This document shows, piece by piece, positions 1 through 39,600 of a stretch of 64,000 nt of DNA. The position numbers were made by a program, and so were the translations under genes. The notes below the pieces were generated by a model. The model did no database searches. It saw nothing but the letters and a program-made list of their open reading frames with translations, and was not told the DNA's origin. The stretch is from Sialis fuliginosa (taxonomy: Eukaryota > Arthropoda > Insecta > Megaloptera > Sialidae): the NCBI GenBank assembly GCA_961205875.1, contig OY540812.1, positions 32,497,098 to 32,561,097 of the forward strand, given 5' to 3'. Within the stretch, counting starts at the first letter, position 1, and the number at the start of each line of letters is the position of its first letter.

Positions 1-1013
1 GTTCAATGGGAAAATCAAGCGCTCCGTTATTTTTCCTAGGGTCGCATTTTGTATTCTCTTTACAATTATGATATAAAAATAACATAGTATTAAAACATAA
101 AACAAACATTGAGATCTACATTTTGACACCCCACATGTCTCGACATAAACCTTTTTATTTTTTTTGGTGGGGGGGGGGCATTACTTTACAAGTTCAGTAA
201 AAATTTTATATTTCTAGCTCATATAGTTTGCAAGATATTTTGCTTTGACTGAAAAGGTCGATCGGACAACAAAGTGAGATTTATTAAAGGTTCCTTCGGA
301 ACTATAAATAAATACTCGCAGTTATTGAAAAATAAAAAATACTAATATAATAATCCTTAAAACAATTAACGCTTAAGCTAACATTAACAAACAACAATAT
401 ATGGTAGTGGCACCAGTCTTGGATATGACCCCATTAATGGCTATTTTCTTAAATTAAATGTATTGAATTAGAAATATTTGTTGATATTTGATTACTACCT
501 TTTCTGAATATTAAACTATACATTTAACTGTCTTACAGCGTGATTTGTGACAATCGGTCAATAGGTGTCAAAATGGTGGACATTTAAACTAATTATTAGT
601 ATAATTTATTTATTAAGTATTATATTATCATAGCAACTGCTTTACATTGTTTCAATTTTGACGATTCTTTATTTTATATCTTTCGTGTCGTAGTATCATT
701 AACAAGTGTCCATCACTGCGTGCTCATTACTGGTTTTACTTTATCCATTACTGGAGAAAAAAAACATAAACAAAATAAAAGGGTATAATTTAAAAACAAA
801 CTATATTTGCGAACTTTGGTAATTAAATTGATTAAATAAAGAGTTACTTGTTTTATTAGTAACATGAATTCATAAGAATTACAAAAATGAAGCCCGTCAA
901 TCACAAAAACAGTAAACCTTGCTCTTATAGCGGCCATAACTGGTGCCAGTACCTTATTTATGTACTTGGTGTTCGTCAATACCGGATTCACGATCTATCT
1001 ATTTACGTTTCAG
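1..1013. other. Upstream intronic/intergenic sequence with repeats
   Basis: No coding exon is recognisable here. Positions 100-200 hold a fragment of the repeat unit seen again at 2.0-3.0 kb and 10.0-10.6 kb ('GAGATCTACATTTTGACACC'), followed by a poly-G run near 168-177. Positions 402-954 are a TA-flanked MITE, listed separately. Because the exon at 1014 opens with an acceptor and no start codon, this stretch is most likely intron of that gene. Confidence 0.5.
402..954. mobile_element. MITE, family M1 copy 1 (TA target site)
   Basis: Non-autonomous DNA transposon of about 553 bp. The left end reads TGGTAGTGGCACCAGTCTTG and the right end is the inverted ACTGGTGCCAGTACCT; both are flanked by TA, the target-site duplication of Tc1/mariner-type elements. 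An internal block near 545-590, with 'GTGTCAAAATGGTGGACATT', recurs in copies 2 (8224-8507) and 3 (14193-14889). Its right end is 59 bp upstream of a coding exon. No transposase is visible. Confidence 0.8.
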
Positions 1014-3052: not shown

Positions 3053-3394
3053 TGTCCGGTATTATAAAGAAGCTCGCAAATTTGCTGGCTTGCAAGCACT
3101 CTCAAATGAGATATCAAACTTATATGTGCTTATATGACAGTTCTTTTGGAGTTTCATGAAGACTTTGACAAGTTTCGTACACGCGTTGTAGGTAAACAAC
3201 AACGGTATTAAAACAGTAGTGATATTATGAAAATTATTTTGTACGGTGAAAGTCGCCAACTGTGTTACAATTACTTGAAGTATCACTGCTCTAAATTCCA
3301 TAGCTAATCCATATATACTAGTACAGAATTAATACCCTATTTGAGAGTGCTTGACTGCTAGCAATTTTTGCAAACTCCTTTTTAATACCGGACA
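3053..3394. mobile_element. Harbinger-like MITE, family M2 copy 1 (TTA TSD)
   Basis: 342-bp element with ends TGTCCGGTATTATAAAG and TTTTTAATACCGGACA, flanked by TTA on both sides (3050-3052 and 3395-3397). A 3-bp TTA/TAA duplication is the signature of PIF/Harbinger insertions. The element holds an open frame on the - strand beginning MEFRAVILQ that recurs in copies 2 and 4. Confidence 0.85.
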
Positions 3395-5749: not shown

Positions 5750-5966
5750 AATGAACTGTGTGTGGACTTTAATTTATAAAATGTACCTTAAACTAAAAAT
5801 ACACCTTAACCACAATAAAACAATGTCACTCGACACGTGTTTCGACTTCACAAGAAGTCCTCATCAGGAGCCTAACAGTTCCAGACTGATATATTATAGA
5901 TATATAGACTGTATATTTTTAGTTTAAGTGACTAGAAACCACAGTTTCTCCGTTTTTCCAGTGTAT
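5750..5966 (-). mobile_element. Hammerhead-bearing retroelement end (Penelope-like?), inverted copy
   Basis: This is a second copy of the element at 14630-14771. On the - strand, 5867 down to 5831 contains CTGATGAG, a 6-bp stem II with TTGT loop, GAAAC, a CACGTG stem III and a TC cleavage site. On the + strand, the block 'TTTTTAGTTTAAGTGACTAG' with 'CCACAGTTTCTCCGTTTTTC' (about 5915-5962) is the tail that follows the ribozyme in the other copy. It is here inverted relative to the ribozyme part, so the locus is an inverted pair of element ends. Confidence 0.7.
5831..5874 (-). ncRNA. Type I minimal hammerhead ribozyme, copy 1
   Basis: All conserved core elements can be read on the - strand: CTGATGAG (5867-5860), stem II GACTTC/GAAGTC with loop TTGT, GAAAC (5843-5839), a 3-bp palindromic stem III CAC/GTG, and TC with predicted cleavage after C5832. 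Stem I pairs GCTC with GAGT. Hammerheads with so short a stem III are known from Penelope-like elements and schistosome satellites, where they cut best as dimers. Activity is inferred, not shown. Confidence 0.75.
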
Positions 5967-7512: not shown

Positions 7513-9271
7513 ATGGCTTCACTCAAAACTGTAAGTATTCATATTTCTAATTTCAAATAAATACGGGCTTTGATTTCTACTAAACATTAAAAATAAGCTA
7601 CTTCCGGTTTCAACAAGTACGGCAGCGCTCGTAATACAAGTGTTAAGCTTTTGAACTATATACCAAAACCGTGTTGAGATCCGAATTACCTCAATTGTAA
7701 TATAAATAAAGTAACTTAAAATCAAAATCATATTTAATCATTTCGATGGTGTATTCAATAAAAGTTATAAGACTATATAAAATATATTATGACACCAAAC
7801 TTTATTTTGGTGTTGTAAAAGTAGGACGAAGGGAAGATTGCATTAATTTAATTAAGCCTTAGACTATTGTGTTGTTTATTTATGTCCGGTTTTATAAAGG
7901 AGCTAGCAAATTTGTTAGCTAGCAAGCACTTTCAAATGAGATATCAAACTTATATGACAGTTCTTTTGGAGTTTGTTGAAGACTTTGACAAGTTTCGCGT
8001 ACGCGTTGTAGATAAATAACAACGGTATTAAAACAGTGGTGATATTATGAAAATTATTTTGTACGGTCAAAGATGCCAACTGTGTTACAATTAGTTGAAG
8101 CGTCACTGCTCTAAATTCCATAGCTAATCCATAAATACTAGTACAGAATTAATACCCCATTTGAAAGTGCTTGCTAGCTAGCAAATTTTGCTAGCTCCTT
8201 TATAATACCGGACATTAATGTACAATGTACTAAATCAAATATTTGTTATTTGATAACTGCCATTACTAAATCAAAATCTATAGACAGTTAACTGTAAACC
8301 AGCTTAATTTTATAACAATCGGTCAATGGGTGTCAAAATGGTGGACATTTAAACTGTGTATAATCTATTTATTAATTATCTGCTTTACATTGTTTACAAT
8401 TTTACAATTATTCATTTTATATTATATATTATTGGAGAAAAACATAAACAAAATAAAAGGCATGTGTTCCTTCCTCTTAAAGCGGCCAAGACTGGTGCCA
8501 GTACCATTTTGGATATAAATAAAATCATAATTGCATTGTACTTTACGTTGATAATAATTCATCGAATATAACAATTTGTTAATTTGTGTTTTTGTAGGAA
8601 TACATTTAGGTGTAGTTATACCTACCTAGTTTATCTTATAAATGGTTAATTATTATTATATTATTTTCAGTTTTCATTGATGTTTGTTATTCTTCTTGCT
8701 TTTGTATGTCAGATATTTGCAAGAACTTATGAATTAGAAAATGGTATGTATCTATTTATTTGTTTTTTAATAGAATATTATTTAGTTTATTTATATAGGT
8801 ATTAACTCACAGCTCATTCAGCAAACGTTTCATTGCAAATTGCACCCATCAACCAGTGAAAATATACAAGTTTTGAGGCTTCCGCGGTGATCTTGATATG
8901 GATCTTGGCTTCTGGGTGTAAGTCACGTCGATTTGGTCGTGTTATCGGCCACCGTTTCGTCACATATTGCAGTGGATATCTAAAAGTGCTTTTAGACGAG
9001 TGAAAATATAATTAATAAAGTTTATTTTATGTTCTTGGACACGTATAACGGTTCCTTTAGATAGTAAAGTTTCTTATTTATAACTTTTCTATAGGTATTT
9101 ATGCTATTCAGAAAAGTATATGATAAATATTTTTCAGAACAACAAGAACGTTTAAAAAGAGACCACAATGAAGGTATCACTGGACCAGTTCACACTTTTG
9201 TAAAGACTGACAAACACGCCAATTTTAAATGGGGGGTGCGTCACCACGTCGGACACCATTATGGACGTTAA
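7513..9271 (+). CDS. 74-aa preproprotein giving a His-rich 36-aa peptide
   Basis: Three exons are supported: 7513-7530 (ATG, six codons, donor GTAAGT), 8671-8743 (after TTTTCAG, donor GTATGT) and 9138-9271 (after TTTTCAG, stop TAA). The phases close into 74 codons. Residues 1-23 are a signal peptide (MASLKT, then hydrophobic FSLMFVILLAFV...). Residues 24-38 form an acidic to basic propeptide ending RLKR, a furin-type site. The predicted mature chain, residues 39-74, starts DHNEGITGPVHTF and ends FKWGVRHHVGHHYGR; it is cationic and His-rich and has no cysteine. The architecture fits a secreted effector, antimicrobial-type or cuticular peptide, but I cannot assign a family. The KWG...HHYG end resembles RWG...EHYW in the gene at 1014-1785. 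Intron 1 carries two MITEs. Confidence 0.85.
7883..8214. mobile_element. Harbinger-like MITE, family M2 copy 2 (TTA TSD)
   Basis: 332-bp element with ends TGTCCGGTTTTATAAAGG and TATAATACCGGACA between TTA trinucleotides at 7880-7882 and 8215-8217. It lies in intron 1 of the 74-aa preproprotein gene. It contains the - strand open frame MEFRAVTLQLIV... also seen in copy 4. Confidence 0.85.
8224..8507. mobile_element. MITE family M1 copy 2, left-truncated
   Basis: The interior matches copies 1 and 3, including 'GTGTCAAAATGGTGGACATT', and the right end 'CCAAGACTGGTGCCAGTACC' is intact. The left terminal repeat is missing. It begins about 10 bp from the end of the neighbouring M2 MITE, so the two insertions abut in the same intron. 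Confidence 0.7.
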
Positions 9272-14100: not shown

Positions 14101-17100
14101 GCTGAATAATTATGATGAAACTCTTTGTTTTAATGATGTATTATAAACGTAGTAATTAGGTCATGTTTGCAAATTATTCAGAAATACATATAAGGTATTG
14201 GCACCGGTCTTGGACAATACCCCAGTGTTGGACACTTGTTTAATTAAATTTACTCAACTATTAATACTTGTTGATATTTGATTACTGACATTACTGAATC
14301 ATTATCTATAGACACTTAACTGTAAAACAACTTAATTTGATGACAATCGGCCAATGGGTGTCATGATGGTGAATATTTAAACTAATTATTAGTGTAATCT
14401 ATTTACTAATATTGTCATAGCATCTGCTTTACATTGTTTCAAATTTTACGATTCTTTATTTTATAACTTTTGTGTCATAGTACTAATCATTTTGAAATCA
14501 TTAACAAGTGTCCATCACTGGGTGCCCATTACTAGTTTTATTTAATAATATTTATAAAATAAAAAGGTATAATTTAAAAAACAAAACTATATTTTCGGTC
14601 AATGGTAATTAATTTGATTTAATAAAGAGAGAGTTTGGAACTGTTAGGCTCCTGATGAGGACTTCTTGTGAAGTCGAAACACGTGTCGGGTGACATTGTT
14701 TTATTGTGGTTAAGGTGTATATTTTTAGTTTAAGTGACTAAGAAACCACAGTTTCTCCGTTTTTCCAATAGTAATAAAGAGATACTTGTTTAGTAGCATG
14801 AGCTCATGATAATTACAAAAAAGAAGCCCATTAATCCCTAAAAATAGTATACCTTGTTCTAAAAGCGTCCAAGACTGGTGCTAGTACCTTATTTATGTAT
14901 TAACACAGAGATTATTTTGCAAAAACTAGCCTTCTTAGTTGATTTTATTATGAAAATATCAACCGTTTTTTTAATACGTGCCTGATTTAATTTCATTATT
15001 ATTTAGCCTAAACTAAAGATACTAAGCTTTCAAACAGTGAAATTCTCATCAAATTAGGTTTAGTAGTTTACGTGTTAAGTCGATATTTTTATTATTAAAT
15101 ATCAATTGTAAATTTTCCTTAATACGGGCCTACACTAATTCAACTGTCATACATAACTAAGTATTTTGCTTGTGAACTATGAAAGTTCCATAAAAATCAG
15201 TTCAGTAGTTTTCGTGTCAGTTGGAAGAAAAAACAGACAAAATTTCAAAATATATCAAAATGGATTTATTTCTTAAAAAAATTTAATAGTAGGTATCACA
15301 GGTATCAGTTGGATCAAATCATTGTGTCTAAACATGTGCAGGTAGATTAAAAACAGGTGTATTTTAATTTAAAAAAATAAAATTGATCGTTAAAATATAA
15401 AATGTATTAAAATTAATACTTATAATTTTTTTTAGTTAATAGTATAATTAAATGTAAGTAATTAAAAATTGAATGCATTCGTAACGTGAATTAATAAACA
15501 ATGAACGTATCAATTAATAATAATAACTAATTAATTTCAAAATTAGTATAAGTATATAGAGCTTTCACTAAAGAATACACATTTATAAATTGCACGATTT
15601 AGCAAATGGTCATACATGGGTATTCCAGATTCCAAATAACACGTTTATTCTACGAGTACCTACACTTTTTAAATTAATTAATGTGAATATATTTAATTAA
15701 TTTCTTCCATACAATATTGAAGATACGAGAAGTTTTTGTTCTCCGATTTCAAAATTTTAAATTGATCTCTGTTTGTATGTCTGTCGACTGTCTGTATGTA
15801 TGTCCCCTGAATCCTTCACACACATAACTCATGAACATGAACCACTGAACCGATATTAATGAAACTTGTTTGGATGGTTGGGTTTGGGTTGAGGACGGTC
15901 CCATTTCAAAATTATCAAAATCGTGTGCAATGGGAGAGGTGAAAATATTTATTTTTTCAAGATACCTCAAGAACGACACATGTTACGTGAAAATTTTATA
16001 GAATCTTTTTTGTAGAGCATTCAATTTCCTATAATATATGTATATACAACGTTTGCTGTAAAATATTCACTTACAAAGATTAATCTCAATTTGCTTTAAA
16101 AAATCATTTGTTTTTTTTAAATTGATACTTACTTTGACATATTAAATGTCATTTTGAGGGTTGTATAAATTTAGATTAGATTGAAATTGTCAAAAAATTA
16201 AAAATATACGTCTCATGATGGAAAGATATATTTGTACAATGAAGAAAAATTTCGAACTAATATAATAACTAAATTTCACTTAGAATTTAGGCAAAACTAA
16301 CAATAAGTTATAAGTTCGTTTATTTTTTAATTTATACGTCTTTTTTAGAAAATATAATCCATTCTGATATTTAAAAAAAAGTCAATATTAGCAAGCCTAA
16401 AATCTTAATTTAATTTTTTAAGGCTATAATCATTCATTTACGGCAGATCCGTTTTAAGGAAATCAAAGGCAATTGCGTTATTGTTTAACCTTTTCATTGC
16501 TGATTTATAATTGCGTTTTAAGATCAACCAATTAAGCGGGCATTCGCCCATTTTTAAAAACACGCGGTCGTTTACTTCTCAGTAAATTATTATTATATTA
16601 CATTAATTAGCAAAATTCAGAAAGAAAGTATTAACAGTTAATTACCTCGTTATATTCTTCAGGTTCTTGTTGCTGGAGTGGGCTCTTGAGTTGAGGAATC
16701 CTTTGGCGAGGCGCTGGGGGTTGTGGGGCAGCCACGTACCTTACAGCAGTTTGGGGCTGAGGGGCAGGTTGGGCTTGGGGCTGAGGCACGAGTCTGTATT
16801 GGGACTGAACAGGATGGCCGAACTGTTGTTGTAATGATTGCTGAATCTAAATCAAATAGTATCAATTAAAAATAACGTTTCGAGTGAATAGATGTCCACT
16901 GTAACGTCTAACAAAACATTGGCCGAGGTAATGACCAAGATTCACAATCATTATTATCATGTTTTAACTAATATATTTTGAAACAGTGGGAGTTTTTTTA
17001 TCAGAGCCCCGTGGGCTGTAATTTTTAACTTCAAATGTTTTAATTTGTTATACTTACGACTTAGAACTGCATATAGAAAAAATCAATTATGCCATACTTT

Positions 17101-30600: not shown

Positions 30601-32311
30601 CGCTAGGTTCCGCCTCCGAGACTGCAGTCATATCTTCAGAGTCCTGTTCGCATACATGTTTGTTTAGAAGGTCTTTTGATGAGAAGTTCTTGCCGCAGTC
30701 GTCGCAATCTTCACCTGTGTGATAACGAAAGAATAGTAAAAAAACTAAAGTTATTTTATAGAAAAATCTTTTTTTTTTTTAATTAAGAGTTGACATTAAA
30801 AGCGAAAAATAATGATTAATTTTCTGAAATAGAATATCTATTTCAGAATTGTGTGATTTTATAAATACATATTTAAATATATTGACAAAAAACATATGAG
30901 GCGTTTAGATCAAAGACATACAGATTCAATTGAGGAAAAGTTTACACACTATCAGAATTTTAAATTACTTTTTAACAAAAATAGATGCAAACCCTACTAA
31001 ATGGGAGATGTATTTTCTAACGTCTAACCACTAAGTATATTTATCTCTAATTTCATATTCAGAAAATTATTACTTACCCATGTGCAAACGGATATGAACC
31101 CTGAGATGGGCCTCTTCATCGAACTGCGCTTCACAGAGTTCACAGGAATACTTGGTTTCATGGTTTCCTGATACATTATTTTCCTTACAACCACTTTTAT
31201 CACATAAATGCTCTTCTAATTCACTAGAACTCATGAAATCTTTATCACAGTCGTTGCACGAAAATCTAGTCTTGTCTTTCAAAGTATTCAGTTGTAACTG
31301 ATCAAATAGTTTTGGATTATGTGTCTGTATATGAGTTTTTGCACAACCAAATCTTTCGTACACTTTTTTACAAATCGTACAAACATACCTTTTTCCGTTT
31401 TTAGATTTATTCGTTGACATATTTTGTTTTGTTTTTATAAAATATTTTAATAAGTTGTTTTCTTCATTTATTTTATTTGTCTTTGGTTGCAATATTTCAT
31501 AATTTGAGGTACGGTGATGTTTATTTATATGCTCCTGAAGATATTTTAAATATTTAAAACCTTTTCCGCACTCTTTACAAAATAACATGTGTGTTCTCTT
31601 AGAATAAAATAATTTTCTTTTAATTATATTTCTTTTAAATAACAAATCGTTTGATTTTTTTTGACAAACGTTATTTCTATGTTGTTTACAGGCCGTGTAT
31701 GTTTTAAACGATTTATTACAAAAAGGACATTTATAAATAACTTTGATCGCGTGAACACGCAAATGATTTTTTATATTTTTCTCATATCTACATATTTTAT
31801 TGCAAAAATAGCATTTAAAAAAATCTTGTTTCTTTGAGTACGAGTGTGACAAAAAATGATTTCTATATCGTAAAAAAGATTCAAATTGTTTCATACAACT
31901 TTTACATTTCCATTTACTTTTTTTATAACAAGTTCTCTTCACCGATAAATTCTTAATAACTTCATTTTTGATATATTTTTCTTTAGAAGTAGAACTATTT
32001 GCCTGATGTAAAACTGCATTCGATGCAATACAAGCTGTACGGAAATGATATGCGGTTTGTAATTTTTCTACGCAATCACTACAAATGTAACTCGGTAAAC
32101 CATCGTACTGATTCACCTAAAATTAATGTATAAAATAAATACAATGTAAAATAAGAAAAATTAAACTACCTACAAAAACAGGAGCACACTCCATTATTGC
32201 ATTTGCAGGAGTTAGCGTAAAATCTAGCAAAGCACACAGAGAAAATAAATCGTAAAATTCTTCTGAAGGATTCAACTCAGTTCGTAGACACACTCGACAA
32301 CTTGTATTCAT
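27625..32311 (-). CDS. ZAD-C2H2 zinc-finger protein, 720 aa, about 17 fingers
   Basis: Six exons whose phases all close: 32311-32174, 32116-31078, 30714-30284, 29980-29734, 29678-29527 and 27780-27625 (TAG). The N-terminus is a zinc-finger-associated domain (ZAD): CRVC near residue 6, FYDLFSLCALLDFTL, ECAPVF, then DGLPSYICSDCVEKL; the two CxxC pairs bind one zinc and mediate dimer formation. A basic linker follows. Seven fingers, some with a final Cys, are in exon 2, about four and a half in exon 3, and the rest in exons 4-6. TGE[K/R]P linkers (TGEKPHAC, TGERPQVC) between late fingers point to sequence-specific DNA binding. Three splice sites interrupt finger motifs. The tail ends VVIQDHKWI. 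It acts in the nucleus as a transcriptional regulator, target unknown. The paralogue lies just upstream at 33096-34453. I start at ATG 32311, since the codon upstream is TTG. Confidence 0.93.
27848..29396. mobile_element. pogo/Tigger-like element (TA TSD) interrupted by another element
   Basis: Ends CAGTAGGGTCTCTTTTAATG and ACCCTACTG, flanked by TA (27846-27847 and 29397-29398), lie in intron 5 of the 720-aa zinc-finger gene. The interior matches the copy at 17107-17520 on both sides of a 1030-bp insertion (28172-29201). Confidence 0.78.
28172..29201. mobile_element. Long-inverted-repeat (foldback) element with CTA TSD
   Basis: 1030 bp with long inverted arms of about 270-320 bp: the left arm starts TAGTCCAGGCTGTCTAGG and the right arm ends CACAGCCTGGACTA. 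Arms share 'CAAAATTCTTCAGATTTTCTG' in opposite senses. CTA is present at 28169-28171 and 29202-29204; the uninterrupted site is seen at about 17318-17335 ('CGAACTAATATTCTTTG'). No transposase was found. Confidence 0.85.
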
Positions 32312-33095
32312 TTTCAATTAAATATAACGATTATAATAACTAATGAATGATTAATCGAAATGCAGTTCTGTCAAATGACAAGATGACGCTGATGGACCAT
32401 TTTGACAGGACACTTAAAAAAAATCCCGCCATTAAAATTAATTGTTGCAAGTTTAATTATTTTCAAAATTAATGTTAGTAAGTAATTCGTTTAATTAATT
32501 CAGTGCTATTGAGTGATATAAAAAAAGAACATAAGCAGCATTAAAAATATTTTGGTTAATACAGAGAACATTGATGCTCTAATAATAATAATATACACGT
32601 TAAATGTCCTTGATTATGGCAATCTATTGGGGCAAAATCAAATTGATTAGTTTAGGGTTGATTAATTTTCGTTAGGTTAAAAATGAGAATTCAGTCTCCA
32701 CTGCAACAAACTGTTTAAAATAATTCTATCAAATAAAATAAACATATAAATGGTAAAAATGTTCTGGTTACACATGCACATCAACTCTATTCTGAATAAC
32801 TATATTTGTGATTTTTCACAAATCTGACAGCGGACGCCCACGTTCTCCGTATTTACCCATATTTTTATAGATAAAAACTCTAAAATAAGAAATTTATTGC
32901 AAATATAACCACTGGTACATAATATATAATTTTATAACATTTAAAAATAATCAAATATATTGTTATTTCAATATCTTCATTTGATTTAATGAACAAACAT
33001 AACTAATTAACAGTCCAAGATTGTTTTGCACAGTAATTTGGACACTGAAACGATAAGTAAATTTTGATTGTTGCTTATCGTTACAAAACAATCGG
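32312..33095. other. Short intergenic region between the two ZAD genes
   Basis: It holds the presumed promoter of the 720-aa gene (near 32312-32450) and the 3' UTR of the 380-aa gene, with AATAAA on the - strand at 32898-32893. Nothing else is supported. No clear TATA box. Confidence 0.5.
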
Positions 33096-34453
33096 CTATC
33101 TCCCGACAATATTATGTAACTTTTTATGTGCGGCCAGATTACTGCTGGTCTTGAAATACTTGTCGCACAGAACGCAGCCATATGGACGGCTGTCTGAATG
33201 ACTGCGCAAGTGTTTCTTCAAGTTCCCATCAGTTGAGAACTTCTTGTCGCATACTTCACACTGATACCGCTTCTCTTCAGCATGTATTTTTTTGTGGCAG
33301 TTGAAACTCGAGCCATACGCAAACGTCTTGCTACAGAACGGGCATTTGTAGGGACGTTCACCTGAAATATACAATAACGTTTGTTAAAAGTCTGATGCTT
33401 TCTCTTCACTCAAATGTACCTGTGTGGGTGCGCTTGTGGTCAACAAGGGCCCCCTTGGTGGTGTAGTTCTTGCCGCAGAACTCGCAGACGTAGGGACGCT
33501 GGCCCGAGTGCACGTCTTTGTGTATTTTGAAACTGGTGTTGTTGGTGAAAGACTTGCCGCAGAAGTCACACACGTACGGCCTCTCCCCCGTGTGGATACG
33601 TCTGTGTGTCCGTAGCGCCTTGCGGGAACGGTACCTAACACATAAATCAAATCGCACTGAATTTTCAATTTACAATTTTTTCAAAACTATCAGCTACAAT
33701 AATTACTCAAATATCACTAATATTATTAGGATTATCGTACTTCTTATCACACTGGTTACAAGCGTACGGTCTCTCACTTCCGTGGTAAACACTGTGTTCT
33801 CTTAAATCTTTATTCCGTTTAAATATCTTTCCGCAAACTTCGCACTCAAAAATACGTTTTTTCCTTCCCTTCTTTTTTATGGTTTTTAATTCTTCCTTCT
33901 GCACGGGCTCGCTCAATACCTGAACACTATCTGTATTGTGGTCATCCCAGTTAAACGACGATGGTGAATACGATTCTAGTATATTCTCTATCCGAATATT
34001 TGTCTTTGAATTTTCAGTTAAATTCACTAACGGTTCATTATCTGAGCTGTTAAATGAATGATGGCTGTCATCATTAAAATACTCTTTATCTTCGAAATCA
34101 TTTTCAATCTTAATAAGTAGATTGTCTGCCTCTATTTTAACTAAAGATATATCTTTCCGAAGTTCTATGTCTGATTTTATACATAACTCACGAAAGTTTA
34201 AACATACTTGTAGTTTATCGAAACAGCTCATACAGATTTTATCTGGTAATTCATCTTCAGCTGAAATCTGAAATAAGTCGATCAAAACAATGAAAATAAT
34301 AATACAAATGTTATTTACCTGCACAGGAGCGCACTGCATTATAGAGAAAGATATATTTTTGCGTATCCTTTTCTTGAATTTTAATTCTGGTTCAGAGAAA
34401 ATGTTGTAGAAATTTGTGCTCTCATTTGTTAAACAGACACGACACATTAACAT
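33096..34453 (-). CDS. ZAD-C2H2 zinc-finger protein, 380 aa, seven fingers
   Basis: Four exons: 34453-34319, 34267-33741, 33634-33420 and 33361-33096 (TAG). Their lengths sum to 381 codons with stop. The ZAD is MLMCRVCLTNES, FYNIFSEPELKF, MQCAPVQ, then DELPDKICMSCFDKL. An acidic linker (residues about 75-150) precedes a basic stretch KKKGRKKR and seven C2H2 fingers, from FECEVCGKIFKRNKDLREH to YGCVLCDKYFKTSSNLAAH, joined mainly by H-x-GERPY linkers. This is a nuclear DNA-binding regulator, target unknown. The intron in the ZAD is at the same place as in the neighbouring 720-aa gene, so they are tandem paralogues. That intron is only 51 nt and open. The exon 2 donor (AA|GTACGA) is weak but restores the finger CDKKYRSRKALRTHRRIH. 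Confidence 0.92.
34268..34318 (-). other. 51-nt in-frame intron without stop inside the ZAD
   Basis: GTAAATAA...TTTCAG, 51 nt, divisible by three and lacking a stop codon in the coding frame. If retained it would add 17 mostly hydrophobic residues between APVQ and ISAED. The equivalent intron of the paralogue (32117-32173) is 57 nt, at the same codon position, which supports it being a real intron. Confidence 0.75.
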
Positions 34454-34887
34454 TCTTTTGAAAAATTAATTTATAAATTATATAGAATTACACATTGAAC
34501 AAGAAAAATAAAAATAAGAAATCGACTGACATATTTATTTGTACGTAATTATTGGCGCGACAAGTTATAGAAATTTAAAATAGTTTATCAATTAATATGT
34601 ATAATTACTAAAAATCGATATATGTGTATTATTTTTATAATTGTACATAATATATTTTTTTAGTCTATCAGTTCTTTCTCGTGCTAAATTCTGCAAAGGG
34701 AGATAGATATTTGTATTAAAGAGGATATTGTTTTACTAAATTACTTAATGTAATTACCTTTTTATAGAAAATTTAATGGTCTACAAAAGAGATTCTATAC
34801 AATTTTCACGTAGCATGCGCGTTTTTGAGATATTTTGAAAAAATAAGTTTTTGAGAAAAACTGGCATTAGTCGCATTTGACTGTGAT

Positions 34888-35887: not shown

Positions 35888-36586
35888 TTTATTGAAATAA
35901 AAAAACAACATTAATTTAATTTTAATTTTTCGAATTATTGTTGATATTAGAAAAAATGTTTTAAGTAAAAAATTGTCTATAGTTTATGTTCTATTAAATT
36001 ATTTGTATCTCTTATCAATAAACCAAAAATAAAATAGACATGCATGTATAGCTATAATCGCTGCGCAGTGCGCTCCCGACGAAAACTGAAATAAGCACCC
36101 CCATTCTTTTTTTTTATCATGTCGTTTTCAGCGTCCCCTTATGCTGGCTTACCCGTTATATTTTCTATCTCCACTCCGACTGAATTTACCGCCCCCTAGG
36201 CCTTGCGCTTCCAGCGGGAGCCTATTGCACCAACCCCTAGCTACATCATAACGTATAAAAAAGTTCATGCCACCCATTTTATAAAAATAATATATTATTT
36301 TTCGAAAAATGTAGAAAACACATAAGAATTTAATTTCTGTGAATATGGCTGATATACGTAATATTTTGTAACAATTCTATTTTTTCGCTTTTAATGTATT
36401 TATAATATAATTGTGAACAATCTGTGACATCCTGAGTTTAACCTTATCGCGCAAAGGACACATCATAATTCATTGCATTCATATGAAATTTGCAGGAAAC
36501 CCCACAGTGTTAATTAGAATGCAATGCCTATTATATTACATTATAATTCAAATATTCGGTTATTAAATCCCATTATTAAGCTCACA

Positions 36587-36620
36587 TTTAAATACGGGCG
36601 TTAATGAATTTCGTATCAGT
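36587..36620 (+). promoter_or_regulatory. Core promoter of the protease-homologue gene
   Basis: TTTAAATA at 36587-36594 is followed by TATCAGTATA with initiator TCAGT at 36616-36620. Start would be near 36618, leaving only about 15 nt before the first ATG at 36633, which may favour the second in-frame ATG at 36660. Confidence 0.5.
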
Positions 36621-36632
36621 ATAATATTTTTA

Positions 36633-39600
36633 ATGTGCGCGCGCGAACTAAAAAATAAAATGTTGAATTTACGGTGCAAGTCCATTGTGATGTTGATAAT
36701 CTCGCAGATAGTGTCTTTTAATTGTCAAGTGAATTTTCCTGCAGGTGAATTAAAGAGTGTTTCCATTCAATCATTACCGACGCCAATACGTTTATCTGAT
36801 AACAATCATCAACCATTCTTCTTTGGTATCCTAAAGAAAATCAAACTCCTCTGTTTAAAATTAAAACGAACGACGACCACTACAACCACGACCACTACAA
36901 CTACGACCACCACGACAACCACGGCCAGACCAAACACAACCACAACTAGTACGACTAGTTCAACTACACCCACTACTTCAACTAGTACTAGTTCAACTAC
37001 ACCTACAACTTCAACTAGTACTAGTTCAAGTACTTCAACCTCAACAACAACTACTCCGCGACCGTCTTCTTCTACGACCACAAGTACTACAACTATTCCT
37101 TCAACTACTACTACTACTTCAACTAGTCCTTCAACTAGCTCTTCAACTACAGCTTCAACTAGTCCTTCTACTACAGCTTCTAGTACTTCAACTAGCTCTT
37201 CAACTACAGCTTCTAGTACTTCAACTAGCTCTTCAACTACAGCTTCTAGTACTTCAACTAGCTCTTCAACTACAACTTCTAGTACTTCAACTACAGCTTC
37301 TAGTACTTCAACTAGTACTTCATCCACTCCACAACCGTTTTCTTCTACGACTACTGTTCCTTCAACTACTTCTACAAGTACTACAACTATTCCTTCAACT
37401 CCATTATTTAGCACTTCAACTAGTTCTTCGAGTACTTCTACAACAATTCCTTCAACTACTTTAGTTAGCACTTCGAATAGTCCTTCGAGTAGTACTTCTT
37501 CAAGTATATTATCTAGCACTTCAAGTATCCCATCGACCACTATGTCGAATGGTATGGTTGTTAGCACCTCTAGTTCTATGTTTCCTAGTAGCACAACACG
37601 TAGTACCACTGCCAGTAGTACCACTGCAAGTATTAGTAGCACAGTTACAACAATAAGTACAACGTATTCAATGTCTTCTAGCGGGCAAGTCTCTTCTACA
37701 ACTGCTAGCGGAACTGTAACGTCGAGTACAGAGAGTGGTACCACTGTTATTGGTACGACTGTCACTGCTATGCCTTCTACTACTTTACTATCAACTTCTA
37801 TCTTCTCTTCGAGCACGCCACGTAAGTGAAGACCGTCCCGTTTTGGTAGACTTGAGCTTTAAACGTGCGGTTATGTTTTGATAGGTACTACGACTAATTC
37901 ACCGACGACCACAACACAGAGAATCGGGACCAATTGCGGATGTTATTTAATAAGTACTTGTCAGAGCATTAGCGGATCTGGAAATATCGATGTCAGAATT
38001 GTAACACCGGTAAATCAAGTTTAATACATTTTTTGTTAAAAAAAATGAAAAAAAATCCCTTAATTAAATATTTTTACAAGTCTAATTACTTAAAGAATTT
38101 TTAAAATTCGCGATTGTGTTTTTAGGGTGGAACGACATGCCAATCTGGGTACCAGTACTGTTGTTTAAATAACGGTACTAGTCCGACGACGTGCGGAGTC
38201 CGACCAACTATATCCAATAGTCTATCAACTGGTACAGGCCAAGCGCCTTACGGGAACTACCCATGGGCTGCTCTTATCTTAACAAACGATAATTATTACA
38301 TCGGCGGAGGGGTTTTATTAAACTCCAGATATATTCTAACCGCTGCACACAAAGTATACAATTACAGGTAAGTGGAAAAAACGATGTTTAGGCCTTAATC
38401 CTGTTATCCTTGAAGTATGCCTCTACGGTACACACGCAGGTATATAGTTATACGCTACCCTTAATATTTAGTTATTTAGTACCTTTCCCTAGTAACTCGA
38501 GACATTTTTTTGTGCACATCTATGGCACAGTACCTAACCTAACCTAATGTAACCATTCCCCTCCTTTTATAACAAATACAAGAAGATCTTTCAAAACAAC
38601 TTAACAATAGATAACACAAATATATTTTCCGTTTACTTTTAGACAAAAATAAGCGAAATCGTAACTAATTTAAAGCGTAATTATTTACAACAAAAATAAA
38701 CATTGCAATTGAACGCGAATTGATTTGGCATTCTCTACGTTTAACAGAAACCCAAAACTATTTATTTTTGAATAGATTTTCAAAGCAGCGCGTTAAACTC
38801 GTTAAGTTATGCCCGGTATTATAAAGGACCTAACAAAATTTGTTAGCTAGCAATTACATTCATATGGGGTATTAATACTGTACTAGTATCTATGGATTAG
38901 TTATGGAATTTAGAGCAGTGACACTTCAATTAATTGTAACACAGTTGGCATCTTTGACCGTACAAAGTAATTTTCATAACATCACCACTGTTTTAATACC
39001 GTTTGTATTTACCTTCAACGCGTGCGCGAAACTTGTCAAAGTCATCAACAAACTCCAAAAGAACTGTCATATAAGTTTGATACCTCAGTTGAAAGTGTTT
39101 GTTAGCTAACAAATTTGTTAGGTCCTTTATGATACCGGACATTAAACGCGCTGTTGACGCGCCCGGTTGCAAGATTTTGAAGGCTGACTATGATAAAATG
39201 GGTTCTTACTTAGTATACTGTTTACAAATAAATTTTCAGATATTATAAAGTAGTTGCAATATTTTGTCGCTCACCTCTCGGACTATAACGGCAACATACA
39301 CACGTGATTTTTTTGTGCAAACCTATGGCACAGTACCTTTCGAATGATATAAGTTTCATTCTTTTATAATAAATACTAAAAAAAACGTACAACAATTTTA
39401 GATGTTCACGTATTAATATAAATATTATTTTTCAGTTCTTACTCTAACTTAAAAGTTCGTCTTGGAGATTGGGACGCAGTTAATTCAGTAGAGCCGTATC
39501 CGTACCAAGAATATGGAATACAGTCTATCACCGTTCATCCGTCGTTCAACAGCGCTAACCTTTACAACGACGTCGCTGTAATAAGGTTAAACCGCGATGT

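What the first reader, a model, noticed from the sequence alone, without database searches (positions are those of the whole stretch)
14620..14781. Hammerhead ribozyme element caught inserted in a MITE with a clean target duplication
The sequence shows a 142-bp insert between two TAATAAAGAG copies. The insert carries a complete type I hammerhead core (CTGATGAG, 6-bp stem II, GAAAC, CACGTG stem III, TC site), and the uninterrupted MITE is visible at 402-954. Hammerheads in Penelope-like elements are known; a tiny, apparently mobile ribozyme-bearing unit with a mapped junction is much less usual. That it moved autonomously or by Penelope reverse transcriptase is inference.
Basis: partly seen in the sequence, partly recalled or inferred. 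Interest (0 to 1): 0.78.

Follow-up and report, generated by a model that had tools for sequence, protein, structure and literature searches.

The report
Ribozyme-bearing leader of a Penelope retrotransposon
The 140-base insert with a hammerhead ribozyme is one of over a thousand copies of the non-coding front end of a Penelope-type jumping gene, and the ends of the copies examined suggest that a complete insertion is built from two DNA copies started at two different places on the RNA.

Summary
The insert is real: 14632-14771 (140 nt) plus 2 nt of filler between two TAATAAAGAG copies in a MITE. It is not a stand-alone ribozyme transposon but the 5' leader of a Penelope-like element (PLE). PLE copies in the same 392-Mb assembly carry this sequence between TATATATA/TCAGT and the ORF's ATG. 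The 42-nt core has 1,446 matches. The hammerhead is a minimal PLE type: an extra base after A9, a palindromic stem III, 15.1 bits against a gathering score of 34. Sampled arms mostly end at ~140 (A) or ~104 (B), like the known PLE "tail". Of 43 head-to-head groups, 33 are A/B, 2 B/B, 0 A/A, 8 unassigned. Of 28 testable A/B insertions, 23 are flanked by exact repeats of 8 bases or more. Best model: opposite target strands prime one cDNA each, at A and at B, on RNA not cleaved by the ribozyme. Tail, inverted arms, pLTR promoter and hammerhead are already known for PLEs. The leader-only swarm and the near-strict A/B pairing are the additions. Whether leader copies also breed on their own is open.

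The parts
14632..14771 (+). PLE leader unit, positions 1-140 (position n = 14631+n)
   Evidence: Boundaries from 76 genome loci and 2 window copies; same sequence in PLE locus L086
14632..14632 (+). Position +1, the inferred start of transcription (A of TCAGT in the parent PLE; this copy lacks the upstream TC)
   Evidence: 70 of 127 arms begin at -12..12; TATATATA at -31 in L086 and L071; initiator consensus recalled; no RNA data
14652..14687 (+). Hammerhead core: CTGATGA 14652-14658, extra G 14659, stem II 14660-14665/14670-14675, GAAA 14676-14679, palindromic stem III region 14680-14686, C17 14687; predicted cut 14687/14688
   Evidence: 15.1 bits Hammerhead_1, below gathering 34
14648..14651 (+). 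Stem I, 5' strand (pairs with 14688-14691)
   Evidence: Read; position 58 is G here and A in 102 other arms that cover it, both pair with U19
14703..14752 (+). 3' hairpin with apical loop at positions 100-104 (14731-14735)
   Evidence: Minimum-free-energy fold; z -2.39
14732..14738 (+). RT start site B (positions ~101-107): where tail-less arms of other copies end; not used in this copy
14738..14771 (+). Tail between site B and site A (site A at ~14771)
14620..14629 (+). Target duplication, left copy
14772..14781 (+). Target duplication, right copy
14630..14631 (+). 2-nt filler at the 5' junction
14188..14899 (.). Host MITE copy interrupted by the insert
   Evidence: Aligns to the MITE at 402-954 on both sides
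402..954 (.). Uninterrupted copy of the MITE (empty site)
5787..5892 (-). Second insertion, B arm (positions -4..103)
5910..5960 (+). Second insertion, A arm (positions 85-136); 17 nt of filler lie between the arms; no clear target duplication

Best explanation
The insert is a leader-only retrotransposition product of an endonuclease-bearing Penelope-like element. The PLE is transcribed from its pLTR (TATA at -31, initiator-like TCAGT at +1). The first ~140 nt of its RNA hold a minimal hammerhead, a hairpin with RT start site B at its loop, and RT start site A just before the ORF's ATG. The PLE protein cuts AT-rich DNA with a stagger of about 9-13 bp, and each cut strand primes a cDNA, one at A and one at B. 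When the sites near the RNA's 5' end are used, the cDNAs run to or towards that end and give copies of ~140 and ~104 nt joined head to head. If one arm is lost or never made, a single copy like the one in the window remains. When the second set of sites, 3' of the ORF, is used, PLE body is copied. Shown here: sequence identity with PLE copies, boundaries, A/B pairing, duplications. Inferred: promoter activity, enzymology, order of events, and that the usual template is RNA not cleaved by the ribozyme.
For: Same sequence 55 nt 3' of the ORF in L086, with sister forms in L071, L080 and L083. RVT_1 in L071 and L086, GIY-YIG matches at both places. TATATATA at -31. ATG within about 10 nt after site A in L083 and L068. 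Arms start at -12..12 in 70 of 127 cases. 33 A/B, 2 B/B, 0 A/A of 35 head-to-head groups with both ends assigned, 8 more unassigned; in the pattern sample 15, 2, 0 (P about 0.001). Repeats of 9 or more at 31 of 58 insertions against a control mean of 0.5, maximum 3; of 8 or more at 23 of 28 A/B insertions. Two internal RT starts, optional tail and extension of both strands shown in vitro for a lizard PLE (PMC11167929, parts 1-2 of 4 read).
Against: No enzyme, RNA or cleavage data. TSDs are rare in single-armed copies: 6 of 16 single A and 2 of 9 single B with repeats of 8 or more, and window copy 2 has no clear one. The lizard study reports no difference in RT start between strands, whereas here the two arms differ. 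Two B/B groups exist (L098, L105; both reach the region's edge). B ends scatter (98-114 accepted). The leader copies lack the TATA box and the family's full-length ORF was seen complete once (L071, query itself).
Confidence: 0.85

Rival explanations
1. Self-propagating PLE-dependent SINE (compatible with a PLE origin): leader copies are themselves transcribed and re-copied by PLE RT from sites A/B, so most copies descend from other leader copies rather than from full PLEs.
For: Leader copies far outnumber coding matches found: 1,446 core matches against 57 protein matches (only 55 of 1,187 candidates scored, so a lower bound). The unit contains +1 and both RT start sites. A two-state indel at column 109 (39 A, 28 deleted, 2 G) hints at subfamilies.
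Against: The TATA box lies outside the unit. L086, a PLE copy with an ORF fragment, carries the deleted state at column 109, so subfamilies may simply follow PLEs. Use of the 5' start sites on PLE RNA explains the excess without SINE-like breeding.
Confidence: 0.2
2. Metazoan retrozyme: a circular self-cleaving RNA made by the type I hammerhead, reverse-transcribed and inserted.
For: Type I-like hammerhead in a short non-coding repeat with TSDs; such elements are reported in insects (PMC7229834, sections read).
Against: 0 of 82 groups hold direct tandem arms. 140 nt is below the 150-450 bp repeats and 170-400 nt RNAs reported. Copies share linear ends at +1 and A/B and are not permuted at the cut site; 6 of 127 arms begin at 53-61.
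Confidence: 0.03
3. Self-priming: the first cDNA folds back at its 3' end and copies itself, giving head-to-head arms (model of PMC3846280, passages read).
For: Head-to-head arrangement; variants shared between arms of one insertion 6 against a control mean of 0.7, 0 of 500 shuffles reaching 6, though 5 of the 6 are at the length-variable column 91.
Against: A self-copied arm should end at the same start site as the first; 0 of 35 assigned groups are A/A and 33 are A/B. Flanking repeats adjoin both ends in 23 of 28 A/B insertions.
Confidence: 0.07
4. Twin priming of one RNA as in LINEs, or solo copies left by recombination and deletion of longer PLE insertions.
For: Window copy 2 looks like twin priming (inverted 5' part, direct 3' part). 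Solo pLTRs lacking duplications were attributed to recombination or deletion in a rotifer.
Against: Arms of one insertion overlap over up to 92 scored positions, so they are not two parts of one copied RNA. No poly-A was seen at the 3' ends listed. Duplications flank leader-only insertions including window copy 1.
Confidence: 0.05

Closest known systems
Penelope/Poseidon-type PLEs with pLTR, inverted pLTR and tail, Adineta vaga (PMC3846280, passages read)
   Same: pLTR with TATA and initiator-like motif, inverted pLTRs head to head, a ~31-bp tail optional on one of the inverted pLTRs, 8-10-bp target duplications, solo pLTRs
   Different: There few copies and a self-priming hypothesis, solo pLTRs put down to recombination; here over a thousand leader copies, the tail on exactly one arm in 33 of 35 assigned groups, and duplications around leader-only insertions
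Poseidon of Anolis carolinensis (PMC11167929, parts 1-2 of 4 read)
   Same: Hammerhead at the pLTR/ORF junction, two adjacent internal RT starts, AT-rich targets, both strands extended, insertion not needing ribozyme cleavage
   Different: No strand difference in start site reported in vitro; the RT start lies 111-118 nt inside the ORF, here just before the ATG
Minimal type I hammerheads dispersed in animal genomes (PMC7761336, section 8 read)
   Same: Minimal hammerheads without a proper stem III, scattered in non-coding DNA and present in PLE pLTRs
   Different: The review calls their role a mystery; here the dispersed copies examined are read as PLE leader insertions
Metazoan non-LTR retrozymes (PMC7229834, abstract and three sections read)
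   Same: Short non-coding repeat with a type I hammerhead; PLEs suspected as mobilisers
   Different: No direct tandems among the groups examined, shorter, linear ends, no circle known

Membership tests
Penelope-like element (endonuclease-bearing), as a leader/pLTR derivative | Parent ORF with RT and GIY-YIG domains in the same genome, joined to this sequence | tested here: met
   L086: RVT_1 1.2e-12 and GIY-YIG 17.9 bits (below its cut-off 22.6), same unit 3' of the ORF; L071: RVT_1 6.2e-15, GIY-YIG only in the genome search at 20.2 bits, also below the cut-off
Penelope-like element (endonuclease-bearing), as a leader/pLTR derivative | Optional 30-40 nt tail and inverted arms | tested here: met
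   A and B ends ~36 nt apart; 33 A/B of 35 assigned head-to-head groups
Penelope-like element (endonuclease-bearing), as a leader/pLTR derivative | Short target duplications at AT-rich sites | tested here: met
   31 of 58 with repeats of 9-13 nt, 80% A+T against 68% in the window
Penelope-like element (endonuclease-bearing), as a leader/pLTR derivative | Minimal hammerhead in the pLTR | tested here: met
Penelope-like element (endonuclease-bearing), as a leader/pLTR derivative | Mobilised by the PLE protein | not testable with these tools
   Inferred from insertion anatomy only
Canonical type I hammerhead (Rfam RF00163) | Score at or above the gathering threshold | tested here: not met
   15.1 bits against 34
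Canonical type I hammerhead (Rfam RF00163) | Helix II directly after A9 | tested here: not met
   One unpaired base between; the same in 10 of 10 motif sequences found in PLE loci
Canonical type I hammerhead (Rfam RF00163) | Self-cleavage | not testable with these tools
   Needs a bench assay
Metazoan retrozyme | Direct tandem repeats with one hammerhead per unit | tested here: not met
   0 of 82 groups with direct tandem arms within 60 nt
Metazoan retrozyme | Circular RNA | not testable with these tools
   No RNA data
SINE | Internal promoter driving its own transcription | not tested
   Only sequence resemblance of +1 to an initiator; TATA lies outside the unit

The most novel reading that the evidence does not exclude
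The 140-nt leader is a self-sufficient PLE-dependent SINE, and every complete PLE insertion is an obligatory two-primer event in which the two target strands use two different RNA start sites, A and B. That would be a mode of retrotransposition distinct from LINE target-primed synthesis, with the ribozyme acting beside or after copying rather than before it.
Probability: 0.2. Interest if true: 0.78.

Novelty: new variant of a known kind. Interest (0 to 1): 0.52.

Why it matters
How Penelope elements insert is unsettled: self-priming was proposed in 2013 and internal RT starts were shown in vitro in 2024. This genome offers a large natural set of tiny insertions in which both ends, both arms and the target can be read. 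In the part examined, the ends favour two cDNAs primed on opposite strands at two distinct RNA sites, with uncleaved RNA as the usual template. The set also gives a source for at least some of the scattered minimal hammerheads of animal genomes, and a 140-nt RNA small enough for direct biochemistry.

Tried and rejected
Two pattern scans of viral contigs, with the hammerhead and with the tail, found 0 matches. Rfam at gathering threshold found nothing in the window. In 7 PLE loci together at E up to 10 no hammerhead was listed, although L086 holds the same motif that scored 15.1 bits in a 401-base search, so one search is a less sensitive search rather than a contradiction.

Rejected: palindromic DNA transposon (copy 2 looked like terminal inverted repeats until genome copies showed two arms), retrozyme, twin priming, recombination-born solo pLTR, self-priming (see rivals). 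I looked for a pile-up of 5' ends at the ribozyme cut (position 57) and found none: 6 of 127 arms at 53-61; by eye two of them, L097 and L108, may begin at 57 itself. Comparing variants between arms could not tell one RNA from two. A possible downstream promoter element at +28 inside stem II was noted as an idea only and not tested. The number of copies extending upstream of +1 could not be counted genome-wide: the search did not complete (last try). The paper searches made list no paper whose title or abstract start announces a PLE-derived leader-only SINE; only listings were seen for most of them.

Full report
Observation. The 142-bp insert between two TAATAAAGAG copies is real, and the MITE at 402-954 shows the uninterrupted site. 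The 42-nt hammerhead core has 1,446 matches with 3 mismatches or fewer in the window's own 392-Mb assembly. Positions 62-87 have 1,804 with 2 or fewer, positions 1-30 have 1,187 and the tail 1,093, each with 3 or fewer. The reversed control is 0 in all four.

Samples. I fetched 39 loci, the 40 scored best DNA matches less the window's own copy. This sample favours long copies with the tail. I also fetched 37 regions covering 41 of the first 45 of 100 listed exact matches to positions 62-87, all on contig C1. This second sample does not depend on where copies begin or end outside 62-87. With the two window copies they form 82 groups.

Boundaries. Arms whose 5' end lies at a region's edge were dropped; 127 remain. 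Of these, 70 begin at position -12..12, 18 run on upstream into PLE sequence, and 39 are truncated (19 at 13-52, 6 at 53-61, 14 at 62 or later). Most ends are either A (CCAGTAG, ~140) or B (TTTAAGTGA, mostly 101-107); some fall elsewhere. The window copy is 1-140 and abuts its duplication.

What it belongs to. A GIY-YIG search gave 150 matches at E up to 10, many over the family's cut-off. Of 20 PLE regions fetched, L071, L080, L083 and L086 hold the same hammerhead motif 55 nt 3' of an ORF, and L081 a diverged form. L086 matches the window unit's subfamily; L071, L080 and L083 are a sister form. In L086 and L071 the unit is preceded by TATATATA at -31 and TCAGT, which resembles the arthropod initiator (recalled, not from a call). 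In L083 and L068 the ORF's ATG follows site A within about 10 nt, and their proteins align from residue 1 at 54% over 514 residues. So the unit is the PLE's 5' leader. A protein search with L071's ORF gave 57 matches; the only one over the whole query is L071 itself, and 55 of 1,187 candidates were scored, so this is a lower bound.

How insertions are built. Head-to-head groups: 43, of which 33 A/B, 2 B/B (L098 and L105, both reaching a region's edge), 0 A/A and 8 unassigned (B accepted from 98 to 114). In the second sample alone: 15 A/B, 2 B/B, 0 A/A, 7 unassigned (P about 0.001 for independent assortment of the assigned ends). Eleven PLE-body insertions in three hammerhead families (L051, L067, L068, L075, L078, L080, L082, L083, L085, L086, L087) also show the tail on one arm only, read by eye. 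The script missed L051's tail because of an indel and took a chance match in L068 for a tail. L069, where insertions adjoin, was left out, and other hammerhead families (L073, L076, L079) were not classed.

Duplications. Groups at region edges or running into PLE body were left out, leaving 58. Exact repeats of 9 or more flank 31 of them, against a mean of 0.5 and a maximum of 3 in 200 shuffles of partners; of 7 or more, 36 against 5.7. Repeats of 8 or more occur in 23 of 28 A/B, 2 of 4 A/x, 0 of 1 x/x, 6 of 16 single-A and 2 of 9 single-B. The two-armed form therefore looks like the complete product, made when both target strands prime. Window copy 1 is a single A copy with a duplication; window copy 2 is A/B without a clear one. 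The fold places a loop at positions 100-104, at site B. Two adjacent internal RT starts and extension of both strands were seen in vitro for a lizard PLE; that study saw no difference of start site between strands, which is a tension with the A/B rule here.

The ribozyme. All 12 core positions checked are intact in 76 of 91 arms that span them. Helix II pairs only when one base after A9 is left out. This holds for 10 of 10 motif sequences with a helix II of 5 bp or more in PLE loci L048-L087, with 0 at the canonical offset; four of the ten were seen once. An extra core nucleotide is known from a viroid hammerhead (title in a reference list). The free-energy fold does not form the core. The lizard PLE hammerhead needed protein to cleave, and insertion did not need cleavage. 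The lack of a pile-up at position 57 points the same way. I expect weak or protein-assisted cleavage that is not needed for making the copy.

Verdict. The finding is real but is part of a known kind of element. pLTR, tail, inverted arms, TATA/initiator and hammerhead are described for PLEs. What this genome adds is the leader-only class with duplications in large number, the near-strict A/B pairing in the part examined, and the consistent extra base in these PLE hammerheads. Whether leader copies breed on their own is the open question worth testing.

Noticed in passing
14620-14781; L009; L093: The MITE is a repeated target: flanks of 10 of 78 sequences match it at E below 1e-10. L009 hit the same MITE site as the window copy (positions 432-442 of the 402-954 copy) and L093 a site just beside it (441-448).
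   Followed up: partly
402-954 and 14188-14899: The MITE family is large: a 30-nt internal motif has 7,769 matches with 3 mismatches or fewer, control 0.
   Followed up: partly
L048-L087: All 10 distinct hammerhead-like motif sequences in PLE loci have one unpaired base between A9 and helix II; in several the base makes an ATG overlapping the ribozyme core.
   Followed up: partly
L069, L075, L081, L082, L087: Another PLE family with its own hammerhead ends in or next to (TA)n runs, suggesting a microsatellite target preference.
   Followed up: no
7879-8215 and 38809-39145: Inverted repeat pair of 337 nt, 91% alike and 30.6 kb apart, with related copies near 3129 and 52570.
   Followed up: no
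31070-34465 (-): Two zf-AD zinc-finger genes, a type typical of insects (recalled).
   Followed up: no
36567-37829 (+): Open frame of 420 codons coding an extremely Ser/Thr-rich, mucin-like stretch.
   Followed up: no
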